61,701 bases of DNA from Lachnospiraceae bacterium (GTDB lineage: Bacteria; Bacillota; Clostridia; Lachnospirales; Lachnospiraceae), in the NCBI GenBank assembly GCA_017622845.1, contig JAGAQJ010000023.1, forward strand, positions 1 through 61,701, given 5' to 3'. Below, one piece after another: positions 23,230 to 59,701 of the stretch. The notes under the pieces were generated by a model. It had not been told where the DNA came from and made no database searches. It worked only from the letters and a program-made list of their open reading frames with translations. The translations under genes were made by a program, and so were the position numbers. Position 1 is the first letter of the stretch. Each line of letters begins with the position of its first letter.

Positions 23230-23268
23230 ACTCCGCAGCAAGTGCGTCGTGCTGTACTGAACAATTAC
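23230..23268 (+). mobile_element. IS66-like MITE, 3' part only (copy A)
   Basis: The last 39 bases of the 134-base interspersed element are present, ending GTACTGAACAATTAC. The 5' part is missing or too degraded to align. The rest of the 398-base gap 23003-23400 shows no gene or other clear signal. Confidence 0.75.
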
Positions 23269-23400
23269 TTTTTACTTTATCATAAATGATTTTACCCAAG
23301 GCAGACAATAACCGTACGAGGGAGATTTGCATTCCGGTTCAACTGATGATTGAATGAACAGGCAGGAGCGTCACACCAGTACGAAAGAGGTTAAAAGAAT

Positions 23401-24114
23401 TTATCTTTTTTCCTCTAAACCGATTACCGAATCAATAGGCAGTGATACCACAAGTCCTTTAGCCTCACTATGTATTCCGCAATGCTCTCCAATTGCCTGC
23501 ATCAATTTGAGTTTATTTTCATTTTCTATAATGATAAAGAGCATTTCTTTTTCTTCCTGAATCCCCATTCCCCAGAAGCCCATAGCTTCCTGATTGCCTA
23601 TGCGCCTGCCGGGTACTACTGTACCGCCGCTGGCCCCGGCCTTTTTTGCAACATCCATGACTTCTTCACTATATCCTTGATTAACGACTGCTACAACAAG
23701 TGCGTATTTCATATCTGCCATTTTTATTTCATCCTTTCGATTTGCTGCCTCTGATAACTGCATTTCACCGCCATTTAAATTTTCCAACAGCCGAAAAATC
23801 AGATTGTTGACACCGGACATTGGAAGCGTAAACGCTATACCGCTGTTTACTGCTCCTATCCTAAGTTCTGTTTTCAATTTTTTGAGCATATCATCAGCAA
23901 AGGGCTTGGGAAGTATACTTATTATAATCCTTTTGTCAGGAGTACCCAGCCCTAAAATATCTATCATTTCGCTTGAAGCTGTACCAACGGCATTCCATTG
24001 ATACTGTATGGGAACAGCGCCTTTGCGAAACATATCAACTGCTTTTTCCGAAAGTTTCGGAGTCGTTATCAAAATCAGGATACGCAGCGGCACATGTTTT
24101 ATATTTGAATCCAT
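23401..24114 (-). CDS. double-domain PII-like signalling protein
   Basis: A 237-residue protein made of two halves, each resembling the PII/CutA ferredoxin-like fold. The second half carries GTVVPGRR (about residues 160-170), much like the T-loop region of GlnB-type proteins, and ends with IIENENKLKLMQAIGEHCGI. The first half has ILITTPKLSEKAVDMFRKGA and a degenerate loop. It starts 3 bases after the DUF1538 stop, so the two are translationally linked. PII proteins gate membrane transporters in response to nucleotides; here the DUF1538 protein is the likely partner. That partnership is inferred. Confidence 0.8.
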   Translation of the reverse strand: MDSNIKHVPLRILILITTPKLSEKAVDMFRKGAVPIQYQWNAVGTASSEMIDILGLGTPDKRIIISILPKPFADDMLKKLKTELRIGAVNSGIAFTLPMSGVNNLIFRLLENLNGGEMQLSEAANRKDEIKMADMKYALVVAVVNQGYSEEVMDVAKKAGASGGTVVPGRRIGNQEAMGFWGMGIQEEKEMLFIIIENENKLKLMQAIGEHCGIHSEAKGLVVSLPIDSVIGLEEKR

Positions 24115-24117
24115 AAA

Positions 24118-25644
24118 TCATTCCTCCTTAATCTCGATGATTGTATCCACATCATCCGGAATCATATCCTCTGGCTTAATTAGTTTTTTCTGTTTCATTA
24201 ACTGCAGCTTATCTTGTAATCCCATAATTTGAACTGCTATCAAAGGCGTAAGGGCAACCAATGCTATCACACCAAAAGCATCTGTCATGATATTTCCTCC
24301 CACCGCTTCACAAGCCCCAATGCAAAGAGGCAGTAAAAAAGTAGATGTCATCGGACCACTTGCTACACCACCGGAGTCAAACGAAATACCTACAAATATC
24401 GTCGGAATAAATCGCGACAATATCAATGCTATAACATATCCGGGTATAATAATCCACTGGATTGGAATTCCGGTTAAAATTCTTAATACCGCAAGTCCAA
24501 TACTAACCGCAACTCCGATTGACAGACAACGGTTCATTGATTTTGCAGATACTCTTTCATTTGTAACAGATTGAACTTGATGATTCAGTATTTGAATTGC
24601 CGGCTCTGCTTTCACAATGAAATAACCAATCACCATACCGATCGGTATCAGCAGCCATTTGAATTCGGAGCCTGCGATTTCTCTGCCAATCATTGTTCCT
24701 ACAGGTGCAAATCCGACATTTACACCGCAAAGGAACAGAACCAAGCCCACATATGTATAAATGAAACCGACCAAAATACGCTTTATCTGCCTTTTGGTAT
24801 GCCGCTTACTGATATGCTGAAATACGAAAAAAACTGCAGCAACAGGTAAAATGGAAATGAACACTTCTTTCGCATATTTTGGAATTTCTATCGCAAAGGA
24901 ATGCGCCACATCCCTCATTGTTACTACATCCGCAACCTCCGATGCAGTATATACCGCTTCTTTCGGTGAATAGCAGCAGCCAAGCAGCATGACAGCAAGA
25001 ATCGGTCCCACACTGGATAAGGAAACTAGTCCAAAACTGTCACTGGACGCATTTTTATCACCCCGGACTGCGGAAAGTCCAACACCCATTGCCATGATAA
25101 AAGGCACCGTAATCGGGCCTGTCGTCACTCCTCCTGAATCAAACGCTACTGCAAGAAATTCTTTCGGTACAAAGAAAGAAAACAGCAAAATGACTGCATA
25201 CAGCACCATTAAAAGAATGGACAAATCTACATGTAAAATAATTCGGAGTACAGCAATGCTTAGACAAATTCCCACACCTATTGCTACTGTCGATATTAAG
25301 ATATGATTGGGAATAGAAGGCACCTGCTCCGACAATATCTGCAAATCCGGTTCTGCAAGAGTAACAAGCGCCCCCATTACAAAAGCGACAATCGCAATGA
25401 CACCTATTTTATGTGATTTTGACAAATGAGTGCCAATGCCCTCTCCAAGAGGTCTCATTGACATTTCGGCTCCTAATTGAAACATTCCCATTCCGACTAT
25501 CAGCATCAGCGCTCCCACAAAAAACATTACAACAGTGCCAATCTCCAGCGGAACAAGAATAATGCTCAGTAAAAGCACAATACCGGTTATTGGCAATACT
25601 GCTGACAGCGATTCTTGTATTTTTTCCTTCAGCTTCAAATTCAA
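24118..25644 (-). CDS. DUF1538 membrane transporter-like protein
   Basis: About 508 residues with ten or more membrane segments arranged as two repeated halves. Each half contains the same signature, FDSGGVTTGPITVPFI near residue 170 and FDSGGVASGPMTSTFL near residue 425, which is typical of DUF1538. I choose TTG at 25644 as start because AAGGAGG lies 8 bases before it; the upstream GTG lies on that site itself. Family function is not established; the inverted or tandem repeat with GG motifs resembles secondary transporters. It is cotranscribed with the PII-like gene. Confidence 0.82.
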   Translation of the reverse strand: MNLKLKEKIQESLSAVLPITGIVLLLSIILVPLEIGTVVMFFVGALMLIVGMGMFQLGAEMSMRPLGEGIGTHLSKSHKIGVIAIVAFVMGALVTLAEPDLQILSEQVPSIPNHILISTVAIGVGICLSIAVLRIILHVDLSILLMVLYAVILLFSFFVPKEFLAVAFDSGGVTTGPITVPFIMAMGVGLSAVRGDKNASSDSFGLVSLSSVGPILAVMLLGCCYSPKEAVYTASEVADVVTMRDVAHSFAIEIPKYAKEVFISILPVAAVFFVFQHISKRHTKRQIKRILVGFIYTYVGLVLFLCGVNVGFAPVGTMIGREIAGSEFKWLLIPIGMVIGYFIVKAEPAIQILNHQVQSVTNERVSAKSMNRCLSIGVAVSIGLAVLRILTGIPIQWIIIPGYVIALILSRFIPTIFVGISFDSGGVASGPMTSTFLLPLCIGACEAVGGNIMTDAFGVIALVALTPLIAVQIMGLQDKLQLMKQKKLIKPEDMIPDDVDTIIEIKEE

Positions 25645-25727
25645 ACAAAACACCTCCTTATCATATTGAATTTTTGCATCTCACTTTCTAATTCATAATA
25701 TGAAATGCTTTTCTAATTATTATCCAC

Positions 25728-25747
25728 AAAGTTCGCCAGCGAACTTT
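25728..25747. promoter_or_regulatory. 20-base palindrome between marR and DUF1538 genes
   Basis: AAAGTTCGC and its inverse GCGAACTTT flank two bases. It sits 13 bases after the MarR stop. It could be an attenuating hairpin or a second operator for the MarR protein; the minus-strand side has no clear T run. A single DnaA-box-like TTATCCACA overlaps its left edge. Confidence 0.45.
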
Positions 25748-25760
25748 ATAAGCAAATAAA

Positions 25761-26195
25761 CTATTCGCCAAGCTCTCTGTTAATATTTTCATTCATTTTA
25801 GCAATCACTTCTTTGACTATCGCCAATTCCTCCGGGCTAATACCTTTTTGCACGATGTCTCTGCATTCTGCATAGATATCAATCACTTTTCCGACCACTT
25901 CTTTTGACCTCTCCGTTAAGCTGATATGCAATACTCTATGGTCATTTTCATCTTCATTTAACAGAATAAATCCTTTTGTGCGGAGATTCTCTATTGATTT
26001 TGAAATATGAGCCTTGGATAAATGCTTTTTTTGTATAATCTCTTTGGCAGTATCTGCATTCTTTTCACTTTGCAAAAACACCAATATATCCAGTTCTACA
26101 GGACGCAAATCACATTCCTGCATAATTGGTTCTACTTTTTTTATTATCAATTTCTTTAACTGTAACCCGGACATTACAAAATCGGCGGTTTCCAT
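25761..26195 (-). CDS. MarR-family regulator
   Basis: A 144-residue winged-helix protein (LRPVELDILVFLQSEKN, recognition helix LSKAHISKSIENLRTKGFI, wing DENDHRVLHISLTERSKEV) with long dimerisation helices at both ends. AGGAGG precedes the ATG. It heads the operon marR-DUF1538-PII on the minus strand and has a strong promoter with a palindrome over the start of transcription, so it probably represses itself and the downstream genes. Confidence 0.85.
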   Translation of the reverse strand: METADFVMSGLQLKKLIIKKVEPIMQECDLRPVELDILVFLQSEKNADTAKEIIQKKHLSKAHISKSIENLRTKGFILLNEDENDHRVLHISLTERSKEVVGKVIDIYAECRDIVQKGISPEELAIVKEVIAKMNENINRELGE

Positions 26196-26208
26196 ATTCC
26201 CTCCTGAT

Positions 26209-26263
26209 TAGTTTGCTGAGAAACTATTTTTCATAGTATACACTGCTTTTTTTCGGATGTCAA
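26209..26263 (-). promoter_or_regulatory. strong promoter and MarR-type operator
   Basis: On the minus strand, consensus TTGACA (26258-26263), a 17-base spacer and TATACT (26235-26240) precede an 18-base inverted repeat TAGTTT...AAACTA (26209-26226) that covers the expected transcription start. This layout is standard for autorepressed marR genes. Confidence 0.7.
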
Positions 26264-26332
26264 TTAAGAAAGTTTAAACTTTTCTTTTGGCTTCTCCTTA
26301 TCCTTCTTTTGGGCAGATGCGGATGCATCAAT

Positions 26333-26596
26333 TCATCCCTTTTTATAAACAATTCTCTTTATACTTTCCGCAGACAAATTGTATTTTTCTATCAGTTCCC
26401 CGATTGTCATCCCATCCTGATAGTCTGCCTGAATCTTCCTGTTGCGCTCCTGATAAAACCGTCTTGCACCGGAACCTTCTCCCCATTTTTTCTTCTCTTC
26501 CGGTTTGGGAATATAGATCACTTCTCCGGTCACATATTTTTGTATTTCCTTTAACAGCTCATCGGGCAGAACATGGGAAGCATTTTTATATTTCAT
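26333..26596 (-). CDS. CD3324-family small DNA-binding-like protein
   Basis: An 87-residue protein beginning MKYKNASHVLPDELLKEIQ and ending in a helix-turn-helix-like segment (MTIGELIEKYNLSAESIKRI). It matches the pattern of the CD3324 family, which resembles the Mor activator of phage Mu. CAGGAGG precedes the ATG. It starts 31 bases after the nucleotidyltransferase-like gene and may be the last gene of a GNAT/nucleotidyltransferase/CD3324 unit. Function is unknown; DNA binding is inferred. Confidence 0.75.
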   Translation of the reverse strand: MKYKNASHVLPDELLKEIQKYVTGEVIYIPKPEEKKKWGEGSGARRFYQERNRKIQADYQDGMTIGELIEKYNLSAESIKRIVYKKG

Positions 26597-26627
26597 AGCT
26601 GCCTCCTGTTACCATATACGGTCTCCT

Positions 26628-27674
26628 TTACCGGTTCTCCTTGACAAATTCCTCAAAGGAATAATATTTATTCTGATGCACCTTACTTTCTTCTATCGTT
26701 TTTACAAGATATGCCTCTATTTCTTCTGCTCTTTTGGCAAATCTCGCAAGATTCTCTTGATCAAAAGCAGACATCAGGTCCATCTTCTCAAGATGGAAAT
26801 CTTCCTGAACAGCATCAAATTCTATTTGAAGATAACAGCCCGTCAAATAACTGTCTTCTGCACTGTTTATGCTTGTAAAATAAGCGATTCGGCGAAAGGT
26901 ATACCGCATTTCCTGATACCACATTGCCAAATCTTCGTAATTCGGTTCAAACGTCTTTTTCTCATCTGCCATTATTCTGGTCGTAAGAAACTTTCTCGTC
27001 ATGCAAATCAGTTCATAGACTTTTTTTCTGATGGCATCTATTTCATGTTCAGCAAGCATTTCAGCAAATGTTTTCTCGAATCCGCATGGATATTCTTTCA
27101 TCTGATGCAAATCGTTTGTAAGATTCATATAACCGCTTTTTAAATAAGTGCCGTTTACCATGGCAATCGCATTCATAAGATAACAGCACACGCCTCCGGC
27201 AGCCTTCCTTATATCACATAAAGCTTCTTCAAAAAGCATTGTCTGAAAAATCTCTTGAGCCGTTTCTAAAAATTCCAGGCTTTTCGGCATATGAAATGTC
27301 TTATCCTGTAACTTTAACAGCATTTCTGCCTTTAAATTTTCAAAACGGATTTTTTCTTCCTGACTTTTTGCATAAATCACTTCGCCTTTGGCAAATGCAA
27401 AAATCATGTGAGGTTCTTCAATATTTGCAATCCTTTCTAATCTTTCCCATGAAATCGGATATAAGTCATATCCCATATCCTCAATGATAAAAGTGCGTGC
27501 CAATTGATTTCCGCGTTCGGTCGACGGCACAAAGAAATCAAATACCATATTTTGCTCGTCTGTGGGAATTTTCCCTCCGCCTTTTTGTCCGATTAATAAA
27601 GCGATGTCTTCCTGATACTCTGTGCGGATTTTTTCTACCGCCCATTCCACTAATTCTTTATCAATATTTTTCAT
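26628..27674 (-). CDS. nucleotidyltransferase-like protein
   Basis: A 348-residue soluble protein. The start at 27674 is set by GGGGAAGG 5 bases upstream, right after the stop of the GNAT gene. The first 120 residues (ALLIGQKGGGKIPTDEQ, NMVFDFFVPSTERGNQLART, GYDLYPISWERLERI) have the look of a minimal nucleotidyltransferase fold, but the usual Gly-Ser...Asp-x-Asp triad is replaced by GQKGGGK and FDFF, so activity is doubtful. The C-terminal 200 residues are all helical. Similar uncharacterised genes occur in Lachnospiraceae. Function unknown. Confidence 0.6.
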   Translation of the reverse strand: MKNIDKELVEWAVEKIRTEYQEDIALLIGQKGGGKIPTDEQNMVFDFFVPSTERGNQLARTFIIEDMGYDLYPISWERLERIANIEEPHMIFAFAKGEVIYAKSQEEKIRFENLKAEMLLKLQDKTFHMPKSLEFLETAQEIFQTMLFEEALCDIRKAAGGVCCYLMNAIAMVNGTYLKSGYMNLTNDLHQMKEYPCGFEKTFAEMLAEHEIDAIRKKVYELICMTRKFLTTRIMADEKKTFEPNYEDLAMWYQEMRYTFRRIAYFTSINSAEDSYLTGCYLQIEFDAVQEDFHLEKMDLMSAFDQENLARFAKRAEEIEAYLVKTIEESKVHQNKYYSFEEFVKENR

Positions 27675-27676
27675 AT

Positions 27677-28555
27677 TTACCTTCCCCTTGTCTCCCATAA
27701 GTAAATCTCAGATGATATGTGAAAACCAATTCTAAAATAAAATTCCTGACTTGATAAAACGACTGCCCTTTTTGCTCCTAATTTTCTTGCACGATTCATT
27801 GCTTCATAAACCACAGCTTTTGCCAGCCCTGTTTTTCTAAATTCGGGAATCGTGACAACAGGTTCGATATATGCCGTTTCTCCCTGCGTATACCAGACAC
27901 CGCAATGAGAGCAGTATTCTGTTTCATTGTAAGCAAATACCTTAAGAAAGCTGTTTTCATTTGGAGAAGGCTTCAAAAGCTCCTCATCCCATGGTTCAGG
28001 ACTCCCTTCATTGTCGAAGCCTTTATGCAGTACATTTTGAAAGCACCGGTTATCAATCTGAAAATCCTGCGCCGAAATATAAATTTCCTTTGGCATGTTA
28101 TAGGCAAAATCCTGTTCTAAACTAATTTCTAATATTGCGTTTTCCTTATTATTTTGAAGGAAACCTCTTTCCTGCAATACTGCATTCAGCACGGTATCTT
28201 TGTGATTAGCCTTTATCACTACTTTTCCGTCAATTTCATAATTTTGCATTGCATAATCAATCATTAAGTTCAGAAGTTCCTTATCCGCAGCGGAATGTAT
28301 CAGATACACGCTGTCGTCAAAAAATGTATCATATATAACCAATCCTGTTAAAAGATTGTTTTCATCTCTAAAAAGAGCAATTTTTTCAAGCTTTTGTACC
28401 TCTAACAACGTGTGGCACATCATCCATTCCAATCGTCCCCAGTGAAAATGCTCGTTATAACCGTTATCGGCAGTCTTTAGCAGAAACTTGTATAGCTCGT
28501 CATATTGTTCGTTAAACCTTTGCTTATTTTTATATTGCTCAACTTGATAATCCAT
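27677..28555 (-). CDS. GNAT-family N-acetyltransferase
   Basis: A 292-residue protein. ATG 28555 is used because AAGGTGAT lies just upstream. The C-terminal 110 residues form the GNAT domain: EPVVTIPEFRKTGLAKAVVY contains the acetyl-CoA loop (RKTGLA in place of R/Q-x-x-G-x-G/A) and AVVLSSQEFYFRIGFHISSE closes the fold. The N-terminal half (YDELYKFLLKTADNGYNEHF, HWGRLEWMM) may be a degenerate second GNAT domain. It is 2 bases before the next gene. The substrate is not predictable. Confidence 0.8.
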   Translation of the reverse strand: MDYQVEQYKNKQRFNEQYDELYKFLLKTADNGYNEHFHWGRLEWMMCHTLLEVQKLEKIALFRDENNLLTGLVIYDTFFDDSVYLIHSAADKELLNLMIDYAMQNYEIDGKVVIKANHKDTVLNAVLQERGFLQNNKENAILEISLEQDFAYNMPKEIYISAQDFQIDNRCFQNVLHKGFDNEGSPEPWDEELLKPSPNENSFLKVFAYNETEYCSHCGVWYTQGETAYIEPVVTIPEFRKTGLAKAVVYEAMNRARKLGAKRAVVLSSQEFYFRIGFHISSEIYLWETRGR

Positions 28556-28590
28556 TTTATCACCTTGCCTTTCCAATGATAGCTTACTTT

Positions 28591-28799
28591 TGATATATCA
28601 TGAACTTCGCAGTGTCACTCGAAAATACCTCGCAGTATCACTCGAAAATGCTTCGCAGTATCACTCGAAAATGCTTCGCATTTCCTCGTTCGCGGGCTTC
28701 GCCCTATCCTGCTGTTCCCTGGCAAAAGCGTCTGCAGGCAGCCGTTTTGGCAGGCAGCAGCAGGCACTGCTCATTGCTTTCGCGTACATTATATCATTG
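28591..28799 (-). repeat. second repeat family, copy 1 (with tripled 23-bp unit)
   Basis: A 209-base sequence that matches, in inverted orientation, the element at 35748-35909. Shared parts are the end TGATATAATGTACGCG, a hairpin GGGCGAAGCCC, and CGAGGAAATGC followed by GCATTTTCG. Here a 23-base unit (core ATTTTCGAGTGATACTGC) occurs three times in tandem against once in the other copy. Read on the minus strand the left end carries the extended -10 sequence TGATATAAT pointing at the GNAT gene. Confidence 0.8.
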
Positions 28800-28896
28800 A
28801 GGCAGCAAAAAAAATATGTCACAAACCATTATATCTGTTTCTGACGCTTCGACCTCAGACCAGTTGCGAAAATATGCAATACTTTCCGCCCGGAAA

Positions 28897-28925
28897 GCAC
28901 ACTTTTCCATTTTTGTCATATTTTA
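28897..28925 (+). promoter_or_regulatory. sigma-K-like promoter before dpaA
   Basis: GCAC at 28897, a 16-base gap and CATATTTTA at 28917 fit the late mother-cell consensus (mACm, about 16 bases, CATAnnnTA). dpaA is a late mother-cell gene in sporulating bacteria. The same 14-base core occurs before asnB. Confidence 0.6.
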
Positions 28926-28959
28926 ATGATAAGTCCAGTCAAAAGAGGGAGGGTGATAT

Positions 28960-29847: not shown

Positions 29848-29860
29848 GAGGCTTGATGAT

Positions 29861-30466
29861 ATGGATATCAAAGGAAAAAAAGTTGGTATCGCGCTGACCG
29901 GTTCCTTTTGTACCTTCGAAAAAATGTTTGCTGAACTGCAAAAGCTGGCAGATGCCGGTGCGGAAGTCTATCCTATTATGTCAGATTCCTCACAGACAAT
30001 CGAAAGCCGTTTCGGAAAACCTGACATCTATGTCACAAAAATAAAAGAGATTACCGGCAGAAAACCAATCATGTCCATTGCAGGCGCAGAGCCTATCGGT
30101 CCGAAAGGCTTTCTGGATATACTGGCAATCCTTCCCTGTACCGGAAACACTGCTGCAAAGCTTGCAAACGGCATCACTGACACGCCTGTCCTGATGGCAG
30201 CAAAAGCACATATGCGAAACAACAAGCCTCTTGTTATATCCATCTCCACCAATGACGGGCTTGGCATGAACCTGAAAAATATCGGACTTCTGTGCAACAG
30301 TAAAAATATATACTTTGTTCCGTTTGGTCAGGATAACTACGAAAAGAAGCCGAATTCTCTGGTTGCCCACGCAGAGCTGCTCATACCGACACTCGAAATG
30401 GCTCTTGAGCACAGGCAGTACCAGCCAATCCTGAAAGATTATCATAACGATTCCGTATCCTCATAG
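29861..30466 (+). CDS. dpaB: dipicolinate synthase subunit B (flavoprotein)
   Basis: A 201-residue flavoprotein-family subunit (VGIALTGSFCTFEKMF at the start, ILAILPCTGNTAAKLANGIT in the FMN-binding region). It is cotranscribed with dpaA and preceded by AGGAGG. The last codons and the TAG stop are shared with a degenerate MITE copy (30444-30527): the element's ACGATTC...CCTCATAG reads as the C-terminal residues and stop. The family's natural C-terminus may therefore have been trimmed or replaced; the core domain is intact. Confidence 0.93.
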   Translation: MDIKGKKVGIALTGSFCTFEKMFAELQKLADAGAEVYPIMSDSSQTIESRFGKPDIYVTKIKEITGRKPIMSIAGAEPIGPKGFLDILAILPCTGNTAAKLANGITDTPVLMAAKAHMRNNKPLVISISTNDGLGMNLKNIGLLCNSKNIYFVPFGQDNYEKKPNSLVAHAELLIPTLEMALEHRQYQPILKDYHNDSVSS

Positions 30467-30527
30467 TAACGGGCAGCAAGCCATGCAAACCAATATAGCG
30501 CAGCGTGGTGCTGTATTGAACAGTTGC
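30444..30527 (+). mobile_element. degenerate IS66-like MITE (copy B) overlapping dpaB end
   Basis: The start (ATAACGATTCCGTATCCTCA) and the end (GTGCTGTATTGAACAGTTGC) align to the 134-base element with substitutions, and the middle is deleted. It supplies the dpaB stop codon and ends 9 bases before the asnB promoter. Confidence 0.7.
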
Positions 30528-34675: not shown

Positions 34676-34701
34676 AAAACCACTTCGCTGCGGCTTGATG
34701 C
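34676..34701 (+). mobile_element. small degenerate MITE fragment
   Basis: Twenty-two of 26 bases (AAAACCACTTCG...CTTGATGC) match the central hairpin of the 134-base element. The flanking parts do not align well, so this may be an old decayed copy. Confidence 0.4.
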
Positions 34702-35404: not shown

Positions 35405-35543
35405 TGCCTTAATGGCTGGAGTTCTTTCCGCCATCTGATGATACAATCATAAGCGAACAATATTAAACAAAAATGCGGATAAGATTAAAAATAAATTAAG
35501 GTTAGCGTCAAATTCTAAGCCATCTAAAATACAAGAATAATCA

Positions 35544-35677
35544 ATAACTATTCAGTACCCTCATAATTGCGGGCATCAAGTCATGCAAAACCGCTTCGTG
35601 GTGACTTGATGCCTAACGCAATTTACGCATTCTCACGCACTCCGCAGCAAGTGCATAGTGCTGTACTGAACAATTAC
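35544..35677 (+). mobile_element. IS66-like MITE, complete (copy C)
   Basis: A full 134-base copy, from ATAACTATTCAGTAC to GTACTGAACAATTAC. It is flanked on both sides by the same 8 bases, AATAATCA (35536-35543 and 35678-35685), a perfect target-site duplication. Internally it can form a long hairpin (GCATCAAGTCA with TGACTTGATGC) and a second one (GCACTCCGCAGCAAGTGC). Confidence 0.9.
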
Positions 35678-35747
35678 AATAATCATTCAGTTTGACTGTA
35701 AATATCATAACATTTCCACCCTTGATTTTAAATCGTTTTTCCATTAA

Positions 35748-42653: not shown

Positions 42654-42684
42654 AACCAGCCTCCTATGAATATATTGATATAAC

Positions 42685-42818
42685 GTAATTGTTCAGTACA
42701 GCACTACGCACTTGCTGCGGAGTGCGTGAGAATGTGTAAATTGCATTAGGCATCAAGCCACCACGAAGTGGTTTTGCATGACTTAATGCTCGTAACTATG
42801 AGGGTACTGAATCGTTAC
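42685..42818 (-). mobile_element. IS66-like MITE, complete, inverted (copy D)
   Basis: A 134-base copy in reverse orientation, from GTAATTGTTCAGTAC to GTACTGAATCGTTAC. The 8 bases GATATAAC stand immediately on both sides (42677-42684 and 42819-42826), a perfect target-site duplication. Confidence 0.9.
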
Positions 42819-42951
42819 GATATAACAATATATATCACTTATTTCCTAGAAAGTCAATATTCTTTATATGAATTGTTGTAACTAATGTAACAGTTCTGTC
42901 TTTTATGCATTAACATTCGGACGAAACGCGTCCATGGACAGCAGAACTCTG

Positions 42952-43621: not shown

Positions 43622-43756
43622 GTAACGATTCAGTACTCTCATAGTTACGAGCATCAGGTCATGCAAAACCACTTCGTGGTGACTTGATGCCTGACGCAAT
43701 TTACGCATTCTCACGCACTCCCCCAGCAAGTGCGTAGTGCTGTACTGAACAATTAC
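43622..43756 (+). mobile_element. IS66-like MITE, complete (copy E)
   Basis: A 135-base copy, GTAACGATTCAGTAC to GTACTGAACAATTAC, between the MalY-type gene and the HD gene. The flanks TCTCTTCT and TCTTTTCT match at seven of eight bases, an aged target-site duplication. Confidence 0.88.
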
Positions 43757-50691: not shown

Positions 50692-50776
50692 GTAACGATT
50701 CAACTTGATGCCTAACACAATTTACACATTCTCACGCACTCCGCAGCGAGTGCGTAGTGCTGTACTGAACAATTAC
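50692..50776 (+). mobile_element. IS66-like MITE, internally deleted (copy F)
   Basis: Both ends are present (GTAACGATTCA... to GTACTGAACAATTAC) but about 50 internal bases, including half of the main hairpin, are gone. The flanks TTTCCATT and TTTCCATC match at seven of eight bases. It splits an otherwise compact ABC operon. Confidence 0.88.
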
Positions 50777-52769: not shown

Positions 52770-52776
52770 TTTTATA

Positions 52777-53469
52777 TTACTCCTTATTGCTTATCTGGTA
52801 TTGTAACGCTTCCCCCCGCAGAGTATTGCTTATTTCCCTGCTGACTCCTTTGGTCAATGTATATAACTTATCACATAACTCCAAATCTGTCTCATCATGT
52901 GTAGCAAGAAGAATCGTGCCTCCATACTGCTTATACCTGTTAAGATGCCTTCTGATATCAGCCTTTCCCGGCAGGTCAAGCGCCGCCCCCGGCTCATCAA
53001 GTATCAGTATCGGGGGATTTCCTGCCAGCGCACATCCTATGCTCACACGCTTCTTCATGCCTCCCGAAAGTCTTCCGGCCTTGAGACGGCACATCTGTTC
53101 AATTCCAAGCTTATGCAGAAAGCCCTGTTCAAGCTCCTGCTTCAATGCTCCTGCATCCTGATACCACAAGCGCAGATTATCCATCACACTAAGCTCCGGT
53201 ATCAAATTATCCTCCTGCGGCACGTAACCAACGTATGCCTGAAAGAGCCGCCTGCCCCCACGTCCTGCTGCCTGCTGCCCGTCAAAAAAGATATCTCCTC
53301 CGCCTGCTTTTCTCAGACCTGCAAGGATATTGAAAAGCGTAGACTTGCCGCATCCGTTTGTCCCTACGATGCCGATACACTGTCCTGTCTCTGCTGCGAT
53401 ATTCACATCGCAAAGCACTTTTTTTCTCCCATATGAGCTAACAATATGAACTGCAAGTAAACGCTCCAC
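52777..53469 (-). CDS. ABC exporter ATP-binding protein
   Basis: A 230-residue ATPase starting with GTG, GGAGG 6 bases upstream. Walker A is GTNGCGKST near residue 36, signature LSGGMKKR, Walker B ILILDEPGAALD and switch His in LATHDETD. The type is that of ABC-2 drug, peptide or Na exporters. It is first in the operon with the Pro/Gln-rich membrane protein and the two-unit permease. Substrate unknown. Confidence 0.9.
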   Translation of the reverse strand: MERLLAVHIVSSYGRKKVLCDVNIAAETGQCIGIVGTNGCGKSTLFNILAGLRKAGGGDIFFDGQQAAGRGGRRLFQAYVGYVPQEDNLIPELSVMDNLRLWYQDAGALKQELEQGFLHKLGIEQMCRLKAGRLSGGMKKRVSIGCALAGNPPILILDEPGAALDLPGKADIRRHLNRYKQYGGTILLATHDETDLELCDKLYTLTKGVSREISNTLRGEALQYQISNKE

Positions 53470-53549
53470 TTCAAGCCTCCAAACAGCAGCAGTCCGCCTT
53501 ATGGCTTTCTGCGGCTCCCAATATTACTATGTATCTGTCTGCTGATACG

Positions 53550-54638
53550 CTAATTCGATAAAATCTGTTTTTCGAAATCTTCGAAGTTCATCTGTGAATA
53601 AGCTGTATCCAGCTCTTTGTTATTCCATGCGCTGCCGCTCTTCTTTCCACTCAGTTTTGTCGGTTCGTTATAGCCGTTTTTCAGAATCGTAAGCACATAT
53701 CCGACCTTGTTGTCCACATTCTTTTTCAATGTGTAGGACAGAATTTCAAAAAGCTGCTCATGCGTACGGTCATTTGCCTTTGCCGTACGCAGGATATCTT
53801 TCGCTTCCTTGAGGCTGCAGTCAAATGCATCGATGACTTCCTGTTCCTCCTCAGTGGCAATCTCAGACTCACCGTTTTTCCCAATTGTCTCATACTCGAC
53901 CACAGTACGGTTTCTCTTGACTCTTTTGACTTTAAAACGTACGGCGCTGATGCTTCGTTGACCGCTCGGGAGCTTTTCGTGAATCAATTCATATTCAAAA
54001 GAAATGTCTGTATTTCCATTAATCTCCTCATATGGCTTATCGAGAATTTCACGTTTTACATTTCCATTCGCATAGGAATCCGGTATCTTCATCATTTTTC
54101 TAAGCTCATCAAAAGATACAATAAAAGTTCCTCCGTTGAACGTCTCTTTGTCCTTCAATAGATAATAAAGCCGTTTTGAATATTTTTTTGTGAGATTTAA
54201 AGGATATTCGATGCGGTAATATGCCCCCTGCTTCGCAGACATAATCATCTCTTTTACCTCCGGATGGAGGTCCAGCACAATCTTGCTTCTGCTCTCATCT
54301 CCGCGCTTTTTCTGATATTTTATCTTACTGAACCACGGATAATAGATATCTGTTCCTTCGTCTTCCTTAAGCCGGAAGCCCAGTCCTTCAAATTTTTTTA
54401 CAGCCTTTTGCAGATAGTTGTATGCATTTGACTCATCCTGAAGATTATAGAGGTGCTTTACATCGCCGATATTGATTTCATAGCGTGTGTTCTCCTCCGT
54501 ATCATCTCCCTCGCCGACAATGCCGAGCAATATATCAAGGATATCATTCTGCCTTCTGTCAAGGTCATATCTTGCTTCAATGATGGTCTGGGGTCTGAAT
54601 GCGACCTCTGTTCCGCCCATTTTCTTCTTACGATTCAT
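53550..54638 (-). CDS. Rep_3-family (RepB/RepA-like) replication initiator
   Basis: A 362-residue protein. ATG 54638 follows GGAAGAGG by 7 bases; 16 upstream codons are open but without a site. The N-terminal half shows the two winged-helix layout of plasmid Rep_3 initiators (RRQNDILDILLG, YPLNLTKKYSKRLYYLLKDKE, SFDELRKMMKIP, ISFEYELI). The C-terminal 110 residues, acidic then helical, look like a primosome-contact region. Such proteins bind iterons at plasmid origins; chromosomal copies occur in Lachnospiraceae with no known job. A large inverted-repeat structure lies just upstream. Whether it still starts replication cannot be told. Confidence 0.83.
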   Translation of the reverse strand: MNRKKKMGGTEVAFRPQTIIEARYDLDRRQNDILDILLGIVGEGDDTEENTRYEINIGDVKHLYNLQDESNAYNYLQKAVKKFEGLGFRLKEDEGTDIYYPWFSKIKYQKKRGDESRSKIVLDLHPEVKEMIMSAKQGAYYRIEYPLNLTKKYSKRLYYLLKDKETFNGGTFIVSFDELRKMMKIPDSYANGNVKREILDKPYEEINGNTDISFEYELIHEKLPSGQRSISAVRFKVKRVKRNRTVVEYETIGKNGESEIATEEEQEVIDAFDCSLKEAKDILRTAKANDRTHEQLFEILSYTLKKNVDNKVGYVLTILKNGYNEPTKLSGKKSGSAWNNKELDTAYSQMNFEDFEKQILSN

Positions 54639-54715
54639 TAAATAACCTCTTCCTTCTATGTTCCGGACCACTGCCCGGATGCCCATATGGATAACTGTTT
54701 TACCATATACTTTCT

Positions 54716-54744
54716 ATAATAATCTAAATTTAAGGTTTACGCAA
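54716..54744 (-). promoter_or_regulatory. promoter of the replication initiator gene
   Basis: On the minus strand TTGCGT (54739-54744), a 17-base spacer and TATTAT (54716-54721) lie 77 bases before the start codon. Confidence 0.55.
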
Positions 54745-54781
54745 GCCGTTGACAAAATATTTGTGCAGCAGAGGTGACAGT

Positions 54782-54837
54782 GCAGCCGGAGGGATATTTT
54801 AATCAGGACGAAGGGCGGCAGTTCTATGCCGCCCTTC
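54782..54837. repeat. direct-repeat unit and GC-rich hairpin left of the structured region
   Basis: GCAGCCGGAGGGATA occurs at 54782-54796 and again at 55079-55093, bracketing the structured region. Next to the first copy a perfect 11-base stem (54810-54820 with 54827-54837) could act as a terminator, though neither side has a strong T run. Confidence 0.6.
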
Positions 54838-54878
54838 TGTGTACTGACAACTGTCCGGCTTTACGGTTTCGCTGAACA

Positions 54879-55108
54879 GAAAACTGCAGATAGTATCCCG
54901 TAGAATGCCTCGGTGGAGAATGGTGATATTTCCTTATACGATGATAGATACCCAGGAGTAAATTTGCATGGACGCAAATTTAGGCGAGACGGAGGCATGG
55001 ATGCCGACTCGAGCCGGCTCCGTCCTCATTCGGAAGCCTTGATTCATCGTATTAGGAAATTCCCATTCGAAACCAATGGCAGCCGGAGGGATACTATCTG
55101 CAGTTTTC
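54879..55108. ncRNA. 230-base nested inverted-repeat structure, candidate structured RNA
   Basis: The outer arms 54879-54899 and 55088-55108 are perfectly complementary over 21 bases. Inside, 54918-54923 pairs with 55063-55068, and 54928-54944 with 55044-55060 (16 of 17). Two inner hairpins follow: TAAATTTGC with GCAAATTTA (54959-54982) and GACGGAG with CTCCGTC (54988-55024). The nesting is too regular for chance. Purine-rich unpaired loops on the plus strand suggest that strand is the RNA. Size and shape recall large bacterial non-coding RNAs such as raiA, but I cannot confirm a family. An origin-linked DNA cruciform is the alternative. Confidence 0.6.
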
Positions 55109-55130
55109 GTCCGGATAGGAATGCATCAAA

Positions 55131-55166
55131 GGCTGAACTGCTGCCAGTAATGGCAGCGGCTCAGCC
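55131..55166 (-). terminator. terminator of the MoxR-DUF58 operon
   Basis: GGCTGA (55131-55136) pairs with TCAGCC (55161-55166) and GCTGCC (55140-55145) with GGCAGC (55152-55157), separated by a small internal loop. It overlaps the stop codon of the last gene and is followed by TTTGATG on the minus strand. Confidence 0.75.
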
Positions 55167-56423
55167 CCGACTGTCCTGCGTCTTCCCATAACGCACCTCT
55201 TCATATTTTGTATGGAGCAGCTTCATTTCCTCATCACCCTTTAAGCCTGCCCCATCCTCAATCTCTAAGGGTGTCTCATATGGTTTGGGTATATCTTTTC
55301 TGTGCCTGCGGATTGTCCTTCGGTATCTGCGCCGTATCTTTTCCGCTTCACTTTCCATACCGCGCAGCCGTTTCAAACCCACAAGCTCTTCTTTAAAAGA
55401 ACTTTCCTCATCTTTAATTTCTTCAATGACATCACCGTTTTCATCAAGATTGTTTCTAAAATCCAAAAGCACCTGCCGCACAATCTGAAAGATTCCGTAG
55501 AAAAAAGCCAGAAGGCACGCGATGCCGATTACCCAAAATACTGTGTTTATGAAGACAGAAGGCTCCGGTGTCGGTTCTCCGTCATTGAAAAGCTCCAGCA
55601 TATCCGCGCCCCCTGCCGCTGAACCCAAAAATTCACCGTCGCTTTGATACTGATAAGACACCGGCCCCACATCGCCGAACCAGTCCCGTACATCCGTATA
55701 CTGCCTGTACTCCGACATAAAGACGGCCGGAAGCATTCCGACAAAAAGCAGAAGCAAGAACATCAAAAGCATCATGGAGCTGATACCATACAGGCGCTTT
55801 TTAGGGATTCCTTGGGTGCGGCGGTTCTGTTTCAAATATGCCTGTGTCGTGCCGCAATGCGTATAGACTAATGATATCAGCAGATATACAATCGCGCTGA
55901 AAAATGCCATATCACACAGTTCCTTTGAATCAAAACCGATGCCAAATACATATACTGCTGCAAAATACCATACAAGGGAAGGCGTCGGATGATTCAAAAA
56001 GCTTGTCTCCTGCCCCGCAAAAGGGTCACTGCCTTTTTGATACTGCACTTCCCTCAGCCTGTCCCGAAACCGCTTTACGGCAAGCATAAGGGTTTCTGCA
56101 AGCATTCCGACACAGTAACATAACTGATATGCCTCAAGGTGATTTTGGGAGTCGAGCGCCCATGGCAGCAGTCCTGTCACACACCCGACACATGCCAGCA
56201 ATGCCGCGCATATTGTCAGATACGCAACAAAACCTTTGGCGTGCCTTTGCGCCTGCTCCGTCACAATAACAGGCACCGCCACCAGCAGGCATTTCATGTA
56301 AAAGATTCCTGCTCCCTTTGGATCAGCAAGCCCTGTCACGGCATACAGAATCGGAACGGGAAGCGCAAAGACCAGTGCAGCATGAACATACTCTGCCAGC
56401 TTCAAGCCGCGGGTTAAAATCAT
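55161..56423 (-). CDS. multi-spanning membrane protein with DUF4129-like tail
   Basis: A 420-residue protein with about eight membrane helices in two groups (residues 10-240 and one near 300-320) and a cytosolic tail. The tail (KIRRRYRRTIRRHRKDIPKP, then ETPLEIE and LHTKYEEVRYGK) resembles DUF4129 domains, which usually follow transglutaminase-like proteins in MoxR-DUF58 operons. The transglutaminase domain itself is missing here. It overlaps the DUF58 gene by four bases (ATGA). A role in envelope protein assembly together with MoxR is inferred. Confidence 0.75.
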   Translation of the reverse strand: MILTRGLKLAEYVHAALVFALPVPILYAVTGLADPKGAGIFYMKCLLVAVPVIVTEQAQRHAKGFVAYLTICAALLACVGCVTGLLPWALDSQNHLEAYQLCYCVGMLAETLMLAVKRFRDRLREVQYQKGSDPFAGQETSFLNHPTPSLVWYFAAVYVFGIGFDSKELCDMAFFSAIVYLLISLVYTHCGTTQAYLKQNRRTQGIPKKRLYGISSMMLLMFLLLLFVGMLPAVFMSEYRQYTDVRDWFGDVGPVSYQYQSDGEFLGSAAGGADMLELFNDGEPTPEPSVFINTVFWVIGIACLLAFFYGIFQIVRQVLLDFRNNLDENGDVIEEIKDEESSFKEELVGLKRLRGMESEAEKIRRRYRRTIRRHRKDIPKPYETPLEIEDGAGLKGDEEMKLLHTKYEEVRYGKTQDSRG

Positions 56424-57565
56424 GTTCTTTCCACCTCCTTAACCAATACTCGTATATTTTTCCTGCTTTTTGCAGAGTACTCCGAACTCTTTTTATCCCC
56501 CCTGAAAACCGGCATCACAATCAAGACCTGATACGCTCCGGTGCATTCCTCAATCTGCTCCATAAGCTGATCATTGAGATTTTTCGTAATCACAATCAGA
56601 ACCGTATCTTCCGAAATCGGCTTGGTCAAAAAGTGCTCTGCAAAGCACCTGTAAAGCAGCTTCCCGAAATCCTCAGTCCCATTTTCCTTTTTGTACTGTG
56701 CAAGCGTGCGCTCCAGACTGATAAGTACACTTTTTCTGTTCGTCGGCATTAGAAGCGTGTCCGCCTTCGTTCCATTCTTTCCATTATAAACAAAGCCTAC
56801 CTCCATGTTCTGCCTCAGCAGCTTTCTGATTATGGTTGCTGCCATCGCAATGCTTTCTTCTACCAGGTCCTCATATTTTAAGATGCCTGTGTCTTCCACA
56901 TCTAAAAAAATCATCGCCTTTTGGGACTGCACAGAATCAAACGTATTTACCATGAGAGCGCCTGTCTTGGCGCTTGCTTTCCAGTTGATGGTTTTCATCG
57001 GGTCATCCGTCGTGTAGTTTCGTATGGTGCGGAAGGCAAACGGGTCCTCATAAAGCCTTTTTGCACATTGCTGTGTGCCGATCATGCGTTCACAGGCATT
57101 CATTATTTCTGACACATCTGTCATTTTAGGATAAACATAGATGCCTGCTGATGTCCCTATTCCTTTGCTGTAATGTTTACGATACAGCAGCGTATAGGTG
57201 GTAATGTCAGCGTCACTCACTTCATATTTCCCGCGCTTTGTACATTTGACCGGAATTTCTCTTGTAATCTTCTGTCTGCCAAGCACGGAGAAGATATCTC
57301 TTTTATAGATGTAATCACTGACATTGGTATTCTCTATATCCGTGAAATCAAGCTCCTTTTGCGTATGAAATCCCACTTCGAGAACGGGAACCGCCATCCC
57401 TTTTCTGTTCTCGATCATTTCATAAAGCTTTGTCTCCTGCCCTGCATACACGGCATCATTGTCAAACCACAGCTCTACAGCAATATCTTTTGACCATTGG
57501 GATTTGTAGTACAGCTCCCACAGCGTACTGACAAGAAAAATCCCCAGCAATAACAGTATTATCAT
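56420..57565 (-). CDS. DUF58 (von Willebrand-like) membrane protein
   Basis: A 381-residue protein with an N-terminal membrane helix (MIILLLLGIFLVSTLWELYY), a beta-rich outer or linker part, and the DUF58 signature RTIRNYTTDDPMKTINWKAS near residue 180, followed by a vWA-like fold (KAMIFLDVEDTG). These proteins accompany MoxR ATPases as putative clients. It overlaps the MoxR gene by four bases and the next gene by four bases. The ribosome binding site GGAGG is farther away than usual, consistent with coupling. Confidence 0.9.
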   Translation of the reverse strand: MIILLLLGIFLVSTLWELYYKSQWSKDIAVELWFDNDAVYAGQETKLYEMIENRKGMAVPVLEVGFHTQKELDFTDIENTNVSDYIYKRDIFSVLGRQKITREIPVKCTKRGKYEVSDADITTYTLLYRKHYSKGIGTSAGIYVYPKMTDVSEIMNACERMIGTQQCAKRLYEDPFAFRTIRNYTTDDPMKTINWKASAKTGALMVNTFDSVQSQKAMIFLDVEDTGILKYEDLVEESIAMAATIIRKLLRQNMEVGFVYNGKNGTKADTLLMPTNRKSVLISLERTLAQYKKENGTEDFGKLLYRCFAEHFLTKPISEDTVLIVITKNLNDQLMEQIEECTGAYQVLIVMPVFRGDKKSSEYSAKSRKNIRVLVKEVERT

Positions 57566-58491
57566 CTTTTTGACCAGTCCTCCGTCGGCAGTTCGGCACT
57601 GTTTAAAATCCCTGTCACAATGGATGTCTTCTGTGCTTCCTCAAGTTCACCAATGATTCTGTGACACAGGACAGAATACGCCACTTCTTTAATGTCCTCG
57701 GGCACAACAAAATCCCGTCCCTGCACCAGTGCATATCCCTGCGATGCGCGCAGCAGTGCAAGCGTTCCGCGCGGACTTACCCCTGTCCTGTTCTTTCTGG
57801 TCGCCTGGACAAGCGACACGATATAGTCTCTCAGATCATCATGAACATATACCTGACGGCAGGTCCTTTGCAGCGCCCTGATATCCTCCTGACTGCATAC
57901 TGCTCCGATTTCTGCAAGCGGCTCTGCATTGATAAAGCGGTCAAGCATCTGACGTTCTTCTCTGCTGCTGAGTCCGCCCATATTGATTTTCATAATGAAA
58001 CGGTCAAGCTGCGCCTCCGGCAGCGGAAAGCATCCGATTGTCTCCACAGGATTCTGCGTGGCTATGACAAAAAACGGCGTCTCCAGCATCCTTGTCTCTC
58101 CGTCCACTGTCACCTGTCCCTCCGCCATGCATTCCAAAAGGCTTGACTGCGTTCTGGGTGTGGCACGGTTAATCTCATCTGCAAGTAAAATATTGGTAAA
58201 TACCGGTCCTTTCTTAAAAGTAAATGCCGCCTTCTCCTGATTAAAAAATGACAGTCCTGTCACATCGCTCGGAAGCAAATCCGGCGTAAACTGCACTCTG
58301 TCAAATTTACAGCCCATTGACTTCGCAAGCGCTCTTGCAAGCACTGTCTTGCCTGTTCCCGGAACATCCTCCAAAAGCACATGCCCTCCTGCTGCAAGCG
58401 AGGCAAGCAGCAGTCTTGTCACCTCTTTTTTCCCGACGATTACCTTTGCTACATTTTCTTCTATATTTGATAAAATACTGTTTATTTCCAT
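57562..58491 (-). CDS. MoxR-family AAA+ ATPase
   Basis: A 309-residue chaperone-like ATPase. Walker A is GVPGTGKTVLA near residue 41, Walker B ILLADEINRATPRTQS, sensor 1 VIATQNPVE, arginine-finger region LPEAQLDRF, and the small C-terminal domain ends with TGVSPRGTLALLRASQGYA. GTGAGG precedes the ATG. It heads the MoxR-DUF58-DUF4129-like operon. Likely role: folding or assembly of an envelope complex; no client is known. Confidence 0.93.
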   Translation of the reverse strand: MEINSILSNIEENVAKVIVGKKEVTRLLLASLAAGGHVLLEDVPGTGKTVLARALAKSMGCKFDRVQFTPDLLPSDVTGLSFFNQEKAAFTFKKGPVFTNILLADEINRATPRTQSSLLECMAEGQVTVDGETRMLETPFFVIATQNPVETIGCFPLPEAQLDRFIMKINMGGLSSREERQMLDRFINAEPLAEIGAVCSQEDIRALQRTCRQVYVHDDLRDYIVSLVQATRKNRTGVSPRGTLALLRASQGYALVQGRDFVVPEDIKEVAYSVLCHRIIGELEEAQKTSIVTGILNSAELPTEDWSKR

Positions 58492-58550
58492 ATATTACCT
58501 CACTTACGGCTTTTTCTATATTATAAAAGTACTCCATACGCAGCCGAAAG

Positions 58551-59543
58551 TCAACGCCCGTCTGAGAATGAATCTTTACCCTGATTTTTCCTTTGAAGCC
58601 AGCCTATCGACAAATCCATCGCAGCGCAGCATGCCTCTGTCCTGTCCAGTGCATTCAGCATGACAAAGTCATGTATGATGCCCTGCACCCTTACCGCTGT
58701 TACATTGACACCTGCACACCGCAGCTTTTCCCCGAATTTTTCTCCCTCGCTGCGCAGTACATCTGCCTGACCGTTTACAATCATTGTATCAGGAAATTTC
58801 TGAAAACATTCTGCATCCGCCTTCAAGGGAGATGCCAAAATATGATTTCTGTCCTTTGAATACGGTGCGTACTGCTGCCAGAACCACTTCATTCCTTCCC
58901 GATATAAATAATAATTTTCAGCAAACTGACAATAAGACGGAGTGTTAAAACATGCGTCCGTTACAGGATAATACAGAAGCAGTTTATGGATATCGGGACC
59001 GCCCCGCATTTCTTTCATAAGCGTCATAGCGATTGCCATGTTACCGCCAACACTGTCTCCTGCAATCGTCAGCGTATCCTGATTGAATTCCATGCAATGA
59101 CCATCAAGTATTTTCCACAAAGAGGAAAAAAGAAAGAAACATTGTTCAATGGCAACCGGATATTTTGCCTCCGGTGCAAGAGCATACTCCGGGAATACAA
59201 CGAGCGAACCGGTTCTTGCTGCCAGTTCTCTTACCAGCTTTTCATGCGTATGAAAGCTTCCGAAAACCCAGCCTGCACCATGAATATAGAAAATAACATC
59301 TCTGATACTGCCTGCACCTTCCGGTCTGACAAAATATACCCTGACATCTCCCCATTGTCCCGTTTGTATCTGCTCTGTCCTTATGTCAGCAGGATATTTG
59401 TACACTGGTGTATTTTGAGCCTCCTCCAGCTTTTGCCGCCCCTGCGTAGGAGGCATCTGATAAATACGCGGATAAACAGCGCTTTGATTGCAGACCTCCT
59501 CTGCTGCAGGCTCTAACAGAACGCATCTTTTCATTTCAGACAT
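58551..59543 (-). CDS. alpha/beta-hydrolase fold-3 esterase (HSL-like)
   Basis: A 330-residue esterase-type hydrolase. The oxyanion motif IHGAGWVFGS (for HGGG), nucleophile elbow GDSVGGN, and the acid and histidine in GQADVLRSEG and GIIHDFV are in order. I place the start at ATG 59543 (GGGAAAAG upstream); ATG 59534 is also possible. The frame stays open for 39 codons farther, through the MITE at 59568-59701, so a longer product would carry an artefactual N-terminus. The substrate is a small ester of unknown kind. Confidence 0.85.
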   Translation of the reverse strand: MSEMKRCVLLEPAAEEVCNQSAVYPRIYQMPPTQGRQKLEEAQNTPVYKYPADIRTEQIQTGQWGDVRVYFVRPEGAGSIRDVIFYIHGAGWVFGSFHTHEKLVRELAARTGSLVVFPEYALAPEAKYPVAIEQCFFLFSSLWKILDGHCMEFNQDTLTIAGDSVGGNMAIAMTLMKEMRGGPDIHKLLLYYPVTDACFNTPSYCQFAENYYLYREGMKWFWQQYAPYSKDRNHILASPLKADAECFQKFPDTMIVNGQADVLRSEGEKFGEKLRCAGVNVTAVRVQGIIHDFVMLNALDRTEACCAAMDLSIGWLQRKNQGKDSFSDGR

Positions 59544-59567
59544 CTCTTTTCCCACATTCAGCAATCG

Positions 59568-59701
59568 GTAACGATTCAGTACCCTCATAGTTACGAGCAT
59601 CAAGTCATGCAAAACCGCTTCGTGGTGACTTGATGCCTGACGCAATTTACGCATTCTCACGCACTCCGCAGCAAGTGCGTAGTGCTGTACCGAACAATTA
59701 C
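59568..59701 (+). mobile_element. IS66-like MITE, complete (copy G)
   Basis: A 134-base copy, GTAACGATTCAGTAC to GTACCGAACAATTAC, 24 bases upstream of the esterase start codon. CAGCAATC (plus one base) on the left and CAGCATTC on the right are a likely aged target-site duplication. Confidence 0.9.

What the first reader, a model, noticed from the sequence alone, without database searches (positions are those of the whole stretch)
23230..59701. IS66-related MITE family with 8-bp target duplications
A 134-base element occurs at 35544, 42685 (inverted), 43622 and 59568, with deleted or degraded copies at 50692, 30444 and 23230 and a fragment at 34676. Ends are imperfect inverted repeats (GTAACGATTCAGTAC and GTAATTGTTCAGTAC). 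Copies C and D have perfect 8-base duplications (AATAATCA and GATATAAC); E, F and G have 7 of 8. GTAA-type ends and 8-base duplications are hallmarks of IS66-family elements, so a full IS66 relative elsewhere in the genome probably moves them. Internal hairpins could act in RNA.
Basis: partly seen in the sequence, partly recalled or inferred. Interest (0 to 1): 0.7.

Follow-up and report, generated by a model that had tools for sequence, protein, structure and literature searches.

The report
Hairpin-built miniature transposons of IS66 kin
A 134-base piece of DNA that codes for no protein has been copied dozens of times around this gut bacterium's genome, very probably by a borrowed IS66-type enzyme, and its relatives keep three folded hairpins whose sequence changes while their shape does not.

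Summary
The genome holds at least 41 copies. Of 25 two-ended copies, 19 have 8-base duplications matching at 7 or 8 positions, against 0.7% in a cross-copy control. A sister genome has a clean empty site.

The IS66 guess is right but needs refining. Canonical IS66 ends (GTAAGCGTCAAA) match these ends at only 6-8 of 12 bases, like random GTAN words; IS66 elements of the ISBst12 type match at 9-12. Two decayed IS66 genes in the same genus carry exactly these ends: GTAACTATTCAG (L262) and GTAACAGTTCAG on both sides (L264). No IS66 transposase was detected in this genome's own assembly.

New: the element is three hairpins. Across 34 diverged copies their stems covary (score 0.40, shuffled 0.12, 0 of 500); the two ends paired with each other do not. 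Unpaired cells are A-C as often as G-T (13 vs 11 of 1,095), and resident copies decay one side at a time (0 of 616 pairs changed on both sides). This fits selection on DNA hairpins during mobility better than an RNA role at the insertion site.

The parts
35544..35677 (+). full MITE copy (first base A instead of G); duplications AATAATCA at 35536-35543 and 35678-35685
42685..42818 (-). full MITE copy; duplications GATATAAC at 42677-42684 and 42819-42826
43622..43756 (+). full MITE copy, 135 bases; duplications TCTCTTCT / TCTTTTCT (7/8)
59568..59701 (+). full MITE copy; imperfect duplication CAGCAATC(G) / CAGCATTC
50692..50776 (+). internally deleted copy with both ends; duplications TTTCCATT / TTTCCATC (7/8)
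30444..30527 (+). degraded, internally deleted copy; duplications AGATTATC / AGATTACC (7/8)
23230..23268 (+). right end only (bases 96-134)
34676..34701 (+). 26-base fragment (bases 44-69)
   Evidence: E = 7e-4
59568..59594 (+). hairpin H1, which includes the left terminus
   Evidence: position by element coordinates
59597..59636 (+). hairpin H2, with a 7-8-base bulge on its 5' side
   Evidence: position by element coordinates
59661..59685 (+). hairpin H3
   Evidence: position by element coordinates

Best explanation
These are non-autonomous miniature transposons (MITEs) moved in trans by an IS66-family transposase of the ISBst12 type. The enzyme recognises the imperfect 12-15-base ends (GTAAC-NR-TTCAG) by sequence, inserts into AT-rich targets (consensus RAWWWWWY) and leaves an 8-base duplication. 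Shown: the ends, the duplications, mobility (empty site in a sister genome), and identical ends on IS66 remnants of the same genus. Inferred: that this transposase did the moving, here supplied by a copy since lost or missing from the assembly. The interior is three hairpins kept by shape in the lineages that spread; resident copies then decay freely. I infer that the hairpins matter for mobility as DNA (a cruciform or single-stranded step, or shielding of the ends). Solo H1 copies between duplications are inferred to be deletion remnants: H1's right arm and the right terminus share about 8 bases (AYAGTTAC), so slippage between them leaves H1 and both duplications.
For: Duplications: 19 of 25 in this genome and 33 of 41 in named loci, controls 0.67% and 0.91%. 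Clean empty site L390/L407. L262 (G170, same genus): an IS66 C-terminus (PF03050 35 bits, NCBIfam IS66 66 bits, 71% identical to L454 over 66 aa) whose stop codon directly abuts the right end GTAACTATTCAGAACTCC. L264 (G175, same genus): a 441-base piece with GTAACAGTTCAG at both ends holding an IS66 C-terminal fragment (PF03050 25 bits, NCBIfam 62 bits), without a recognisable duplication. L454 (G014): PF03050 118 bits plus DUF6444, NCBIfam IS66 223 bits, ends GTAACTGTTCAGAACCCCC / GTATCTGTTCAGAACCCCC; a MITE in G004 (L104) shares its first 20 bases. ISGst1 and ISGka4: GTAACTATTCAG ends, perfect 8-base duplications. L287, L288, L443: 8/8 duplications, GTTAC..TTCA ends. Ends: 9-12 of 12 for 24 ISBst12-type termini, 6-8 for 11 canonical ones. 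Covariation.
Against: No IS66 transposase was detected in the own assembly (95% complete, 76 contigs). L454 and L447 have no matching duplications, and neither has L264. Part of the 24 termini were found with a related motif. Most intact relatives start GTT and not GTA. No transposition has been observed. The hairpin mechanism is inference; a Nostoc relative has weaker ends (9-10 of 12) and a Deinococcus one gave no clear ends (L460).
Confidence: 0.88

Rival explanations
1. Canonical, multi-gene IS66 elements (ends GTAAGCGTCAAA) move these MITEs.
For: They also have GTAA ends and 8-base duplications (L077, L087, L119, L122) and are common: 57 of 150 family genomes have PF03050 matches, all IS66 types together.
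Against: Their ends match at 6-8 of 12, within the range of random GTAN words, against 9-12 for the ISBst12 type.
Confidence: 0.05
2. The hairpins are kept because the element is transcribed and acts as a structured RNA (terminator, mRNA stabiliser or small RNA), for the host or for its own amplification.
For: Strong covariation; the H3 loop (GYRAR in most sequences) resembles GNRA tetraloops; BOX and SPRITE elements are precedents named in the review PMC10969869 (passages only).
Against: G-T cells are no commoner than A-C (11 vs 13 of 1,095); in resident copies stem bases change nearly as often as unpaired ones (4.3% vs 5.5%), with more A-C than G-T (23 vs 14). None of the 4,227 Rfam families matched an element at the gathering score in the seven sources scanned.
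Confidence: 0.2
3. The stems stay perfect by mutation alone: template switching inside the hairpins copies one arm from the other, so paired changes need no selection.
For: Two-sided changes without wobble intermediates across lineages.
Against: In 21 resident copies 50 stem pairs are changed on one side and none of 616 on both (about 1 expected by chance), so such repair is not frequent enough to keep resident copies paired.
Confidence: 0.15
4. The 27-base solo H1 is itself a mobile element and not a deletion remnant.
For: 27 of 123 H1 occurrences in named loci have abutting 8-mers matching at 7 or 8 positions, 14 perfect.
Against: H1's right arm and the right terminus share about 8 bases, so slippage gives the same product; many other internal deletions exist (66 bases in L067, 68 in L386, 85 at window 50692).
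Confidence: 0.15

Closest known systems
ISBst12 group of the IS66 family (ISDge4 in PMC12898284, passages read; ISGst1 and ISGka4, whose group I infer from their single gene and ends)
   Same: Terminal words GTAACTATTCAG and the like, 8-base duplications; same ends on IS66 remnants in the window's genus
   Different: Those elements carry a transposase gene in 1.5-2.4 kb; this one is 134 bases, non-coding, built of three hairpins
Canonical IS66 elements
   Same: Start with GTAA and make 8-base duplications
   Different: Beyond GTAA the ends differ: GTAAGCGTCAAA
Prokaryotic MITEs, e.g. QMITE2 of Coxiella (PMC10969869, passages) and MITEPsy1 (PMC3189936, passages)
   Same: Short, AT-rich targets, inverted ends, direct repeats, foldable interior
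   Different: No IS66 MITE appears in the passages seen; shape conserved by covariation over a bacterial family is not described there
REP/REPIN elements with RAYT transposases (PMC3116915, PMC2817692: search listing and start of abstract only)
   Same: Short intergenic palindromes that spread in trans
   Different: As recalled, no target duplication; here 8-base duplications and DDE-type ends

Membership tests
MITE | Short, non-coding, multi-copy, inverted terminal repeats | tested here: met
   134 bases, at least 41 copies, imperfect 15-base ends
MITE | Target-site duplication | tested here: met
   19 of 25 two-ended copies >= 7/8
MITE | Empty sites in relatives | tested here: met
   one clean site of ten tested (L390/L407), a second with changed target sequence (L384/L404)
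MITE | Movement by a transposase in trans | not testable with these tools
   needs a bench assay
ISBst12 type of IS66 (as its non-autonomous derivative) | Same terminal sequence | tested here: met
   9-12 of 12 for 24 termini; identical 12-mers in L262 and L264 of the same genus and in ISGst1, ISGka4
ISBst12 type of IS66 (as its non-autonomous derivative) | 8-base duplication | tested here: met
   for the MITE; for autonomous elements
ISBst12 type of IS66 (as its non-autonomous derivative) | Autonomous partner in the same genome | tested here: not met
   0 PF03050 matches in the own assembly, which is 95% complete in 76 contigs; not required for a MITE
Canonical IS66 | Ends GTAAGCGTCAAA-like beyond GTAA | tested here: not met
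   6-8 of 12 for 11 termini
Rfam RNA family | Match at the gathering score | tested here: not met
   seven sources; only TwoAYGGAY and S10-Clostridia were found, outside the elements

The most novel reading that the evidence does not exclude
ISBst12-type transposition uses a folded DNA step: the MITE's three hairpins are a structural substrate (cruciform or single strand) that the transposase or replication machinery reads by shape, so that the element evolves like a structured molecule in DNA. This would be a hybrid between a duplication-making DDE transposon and hairpin-read elements such as IS200/IS605 or attC.
Probability: 0.3. Interest if true: 0.78.

Novelty: new variant of a known kind. 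Interest (0 to 1): 0.5.

Why it matters
[quoted passage not shown] A widespread gut-bacterial MITE family with identifiable autonomous relatives gives a small, testable substrate. The contrast between ends conserved by sequence and hairpins conserved by shape, and between spreading lineages (paired) and resident copies (decaying), isolates selection on mobility itself. Solo H1 remnants between duplications would also explain a class of short intergenic hairpins in Lachnospiraceae genomes.

Tried and rejected
Autonomous partner in the own genome: no PF03050 match and no inverted pair of the 15-base ends at IS spacing in the list (read by eye). Two named genomes with many ends were listed (capped list); five spaced stretches were fetched and I saw no transposase between the ends in their open frames (no family search was run on them). 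A blast of inward flanks for shared long interiors gave three pairs of one orthologous locus and three weak local matches. Viral contigs: no H1; 65 hits of a bare 16-mer, no more than I expect by chance, not followed beyond the scan. tblastn of the L454 transposase found none in phages; the pattern search of viral contigs found none. The MITE has no match in plasmids and one in each of three unannotated fecal 'phage' scaffolds, not followed. Insertion into palindromes or terminator loops: only a weak dyad peak (0.32 against about 0.265), not claimed. Pairing of the two ends with each other: no covariation. An IS66 in G035 with the internal word GTAAATCATTAGTACC looked close at first, but by comparison with L283 its terminus probably lies outside that word.

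Mended on re-checking: I first held that no fetched IS66 locus carried the MITE ends. The listing already showed such ends in L262 and L264; searches confirm them, and confidence in the IS66 link was raised for that reason. One search failed because the stretch held a stop codon; one search used the open part only.

Paper searches: 'MITE + IS66 + Lachnospiraceae' 0 papers; 'ISBst12 + MITE' 0; 'IS66 + miniature inverted-repeat' 8 listed, one read in passages; 'MITE + IS66 family + target site duplication' 2 listed; listings. No description of these MITEs was found in this library by these searches.

Rows dropped: 38 elements passed the filter (both ends, duplication >= 6/8, 120-138 bases, < 93% identical); 34 were aligned. 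Left out: two reverse-strand readings, L198 (H2 bulge missing) and L221 (different H3). Longer elements (about 140-236 bases, e.g. the Blautia and Oliverpabstia type with an extended H3) were outside the length filter. Pairs 106-123 and 108-122, unpaired in 16 and 12 of 34 sequences, are counted but not. H2 pairs were parsed per sequence in the best register, which favours pairing. Searches used partial copies extended by position; one search replaces them with 21 of the 25 two-ended copies (the other four are under 80% identical to the window copy).
Full report
OBSERVATION. The window carries four full copies and four remnants of a 134-base element at the coordinates given. Its genome (G000, 3.6 Mb in 76 contigs) has 41 blastn matches, a lower bound, and 76 exact copies of the end word against none for the pattern read backwards. 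In 19 of 25 two-ended copies the flanking 8-mers agree at 7 or 8 positions (12 perfect); the left flank of one copy against the right flank of another does so in 0.67% of 600 pairings. In loci of named genomes it is 33 of 41 against 0.91% of 1,640. Targets are AT-rich with the consensus RAWWWWWY (111 sites chosen for duplications of >= 7/8).

SPREAD. In the genus 28 of 38 genomes, own included, have matches. The genus includes a genome (G151) whose locus L111 is 100% identical over 1,077 bases to Lachnospiraceae bacterium COE1 (L183). In a sample of 150 family genomes 5 match the window sequence, own included; the sequence diverges fast.

MOBILITY. G185 and G156 are 99.65% identical over 2,000 bases at one locus. 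Ten MITE sites (eight of G185, one of G168, one of G173) were turned into joined flanks and searched in G156, G168 and G173. One gave a clean empty site: G185 (L390) reads AGGTATCT-MITE-AGGTATCT, G156 (L407) a single GGGTATCT with 99% identical flanks. In the same stretch G156 carries another MITE that G185 lacks. The L384 site is also empty in G156, but the target sequence itself has changed, so it is not clean. At L389, L391 and L394 the spacing of the matches suggests that G156 is occupied too. An 83% match spanning the L395 joint was fetched (L426) and not analysed. L400 (G173) and L402 (G168) look like one insertion in two genomes (by eye).

WHICH TRANSPOSASE. The own genome has no PF03050 (IS66) match. 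The same search finds divergent IS66 transposases in other genomes of the genus with about 45-101 bits, so an intact one would probably have been seen. Canonical IS66 elements of the family end GTAAGCGTCAAA, GTAAACGTCAAA and the like, several with 8-base duplications, and match the MITE ends at 6-8 of 12. A scan of the fetched loci and the window (2.17 Mb) for inverted end pairs with duplications gave L287: 2,323 bp, ends GTTACTTTTCACGGGT, duplication TATCAATA. Its 582-aa transposase hits PF03050 at 80 bits and NCBIfam IS66 at 151 bits, below that model's cut-off of 180; a 136-codon frame lies upstream. L288 and L443 have GTTACTGTTCA[CG] ends and perfect duplications; L446 and L447 have such ends without a matching duplication. 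Five proteins of four loci, aligned, keep D343, D394 and E519 (L288 numbering), which I read as the DDE triad. L454 (G014) is the closest intact one: PF03050 118 bits, DUF6444, NCBIfam IS66 223 bits (over the cut-off), ends GTAACTGTTCAGAACCCCC and GTATCTGTTCAGAACCCCC, no matching duplication. A MITE in G004 (L104, 145 bases, duplication CATCAAAT) shares its first 20 bases with it.

THE LINK WITHIN THE GENUS. Two decayed IS66 genes in the window's genus carry exactly the MITE's terminal 12-mers. In L262 (G170) an IS66 C-terminus (NCBIfam 66 bits; 71% identical to L454 over 66 aa) stops directly before the right end GTAACTATTCAGAACTCC, the layout of L454. In L264 (G175) a 441-base piece with GTAACAGTTCAG at both ends holds an IS66 C-terminal fragment (NCBIfam 62 bits); its flanks show no duplication. 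Both genomes have MITEs (17 and 7 matches). ISGst1 and ISGka4 of Geobacillus plasmids have GTAACTATTCAG ends and perfect duplications; a Chlorohelix element matches well, a Nostoc one less, and a Deinococcus one gave no clear ends. ISDge4, placed in the ISBst12 group by its authors, has GTGACTACTCAGCA / GTAACTGCTCAGCA and an 8-base repeat (PMC12898284, passages). Of the 24 termini (9-12 of 12), those found without a TTCA motif are L288, ISGst1, ISGka4, Chlorohelix and Nostoc; the others were found with one or beside one.

STRUCTURE. A sequence-only alignment of 34 diverged copies (A1) gives 21 consensus pairs, 13 with two-sided changes. With 23 named pairs, 94.8% of 782 cells pair; the covariation score is 0.40 against 0.12 shuffled (0 of 500) and 0.03-0.09 when slid; one measure, the number of further pair types, is not above the shuffles (161 of 500). 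The two ends paired with each other show no covariation (450 of 500 shuffles reach the observed score). So the termini look read as sequence and the hairpins kept as shape. H2 has a 7- or 8-base bulge on its 5' side and 0-2 bases on the other in all 34 (best register). Some relatives carry extra sequence inside H2 (L187 236 bases, L172 223, L176 211).

DNA OR RNA. Across lineages, cells without a Watson-Crick pair are A-C as often as G-T (13 and 11 of 1,095, 11 others). In 21 resident copies of the window's subfamily, outside the 15-base ends, stem bases differ from the consensus at 4.3% and unpaired bases at 5.5%; 50 pairs are changed on one side (23 A-C, 14 G-T, 13 other) and none of 616 on both. 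Resident copies are therefore neither repaired nor visibly selected, yet lineages that spread keep their stems. The simplest reading is selection for pairing at the moment of movement, on DNA. An RNA needed only for movement is not excluded.

REMNANTS AND ARRAYS. Of 123 H1 occurrences in named loci, 27 have 8-mers matching at 7 or 8 positions directly abutting the 27 bases (14 perfect). H1's right arm and the right terminus share about 8 bases, so slippage would leave exactly this. Tandem copies one duplication apart exist (three in L129; two in L016), as expected from unequal exchange at the duplications.

VERDICT. The finding is real and the family guess nearly right: a MITE family of the ISBst12-type branch of IS66, not described in the papers my searches reached. 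What lifts it above an ordinary MITE is the shape-conserved interior.

Noticed in passing
window 54911-55075 (+): A TwoAYGGAY RNA (Rfam RF01731, 99 bits) lies here.
   Followed up: no
A1 columns 114 and 117 (apex of H3): The two loop bases are C-G in 23 and T-A in 11 of 34 sequences, never mixed, although only two bases lie between them.
   Followed up: no
L198, element starting at 2896 (+), 163 bases: Ends of the same type and a perfect 8-base duplication (TTCTTGTC), but an unrelated interior with its own long hairpin.
   Followed up: no
G000 contig ends C10:38894-39059 (L047) and C16:1-238 (L048): Both contigs break off inside a MITE interrupted by other sequence; by eye they look like the two sides of one insertion sequence that landed in a MITE.
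   Followed up: partly
L283 (G151) and L284 (G150), about 6.3 kb: Canonical-type IS66 elements (ends GTAAACGG..) whose transposase match is split into two pieces about 3.4 kb apart, as if a second element sat inside the gene.
   Followed up: no
MT836459.1, MT837311.1, MT839789.1 (L435-L437): Three unannotated human fecal 'Bacteriophage sp.' scaffolds hold a MITE copy at 75-79% identity; whether they are phage is not tested.
   Followed up: no
L187, two places: A 236-base variant with an expanded H2 sits twice in one 8-kb stretch, each with its own perfect duplication.
   Followed up: no
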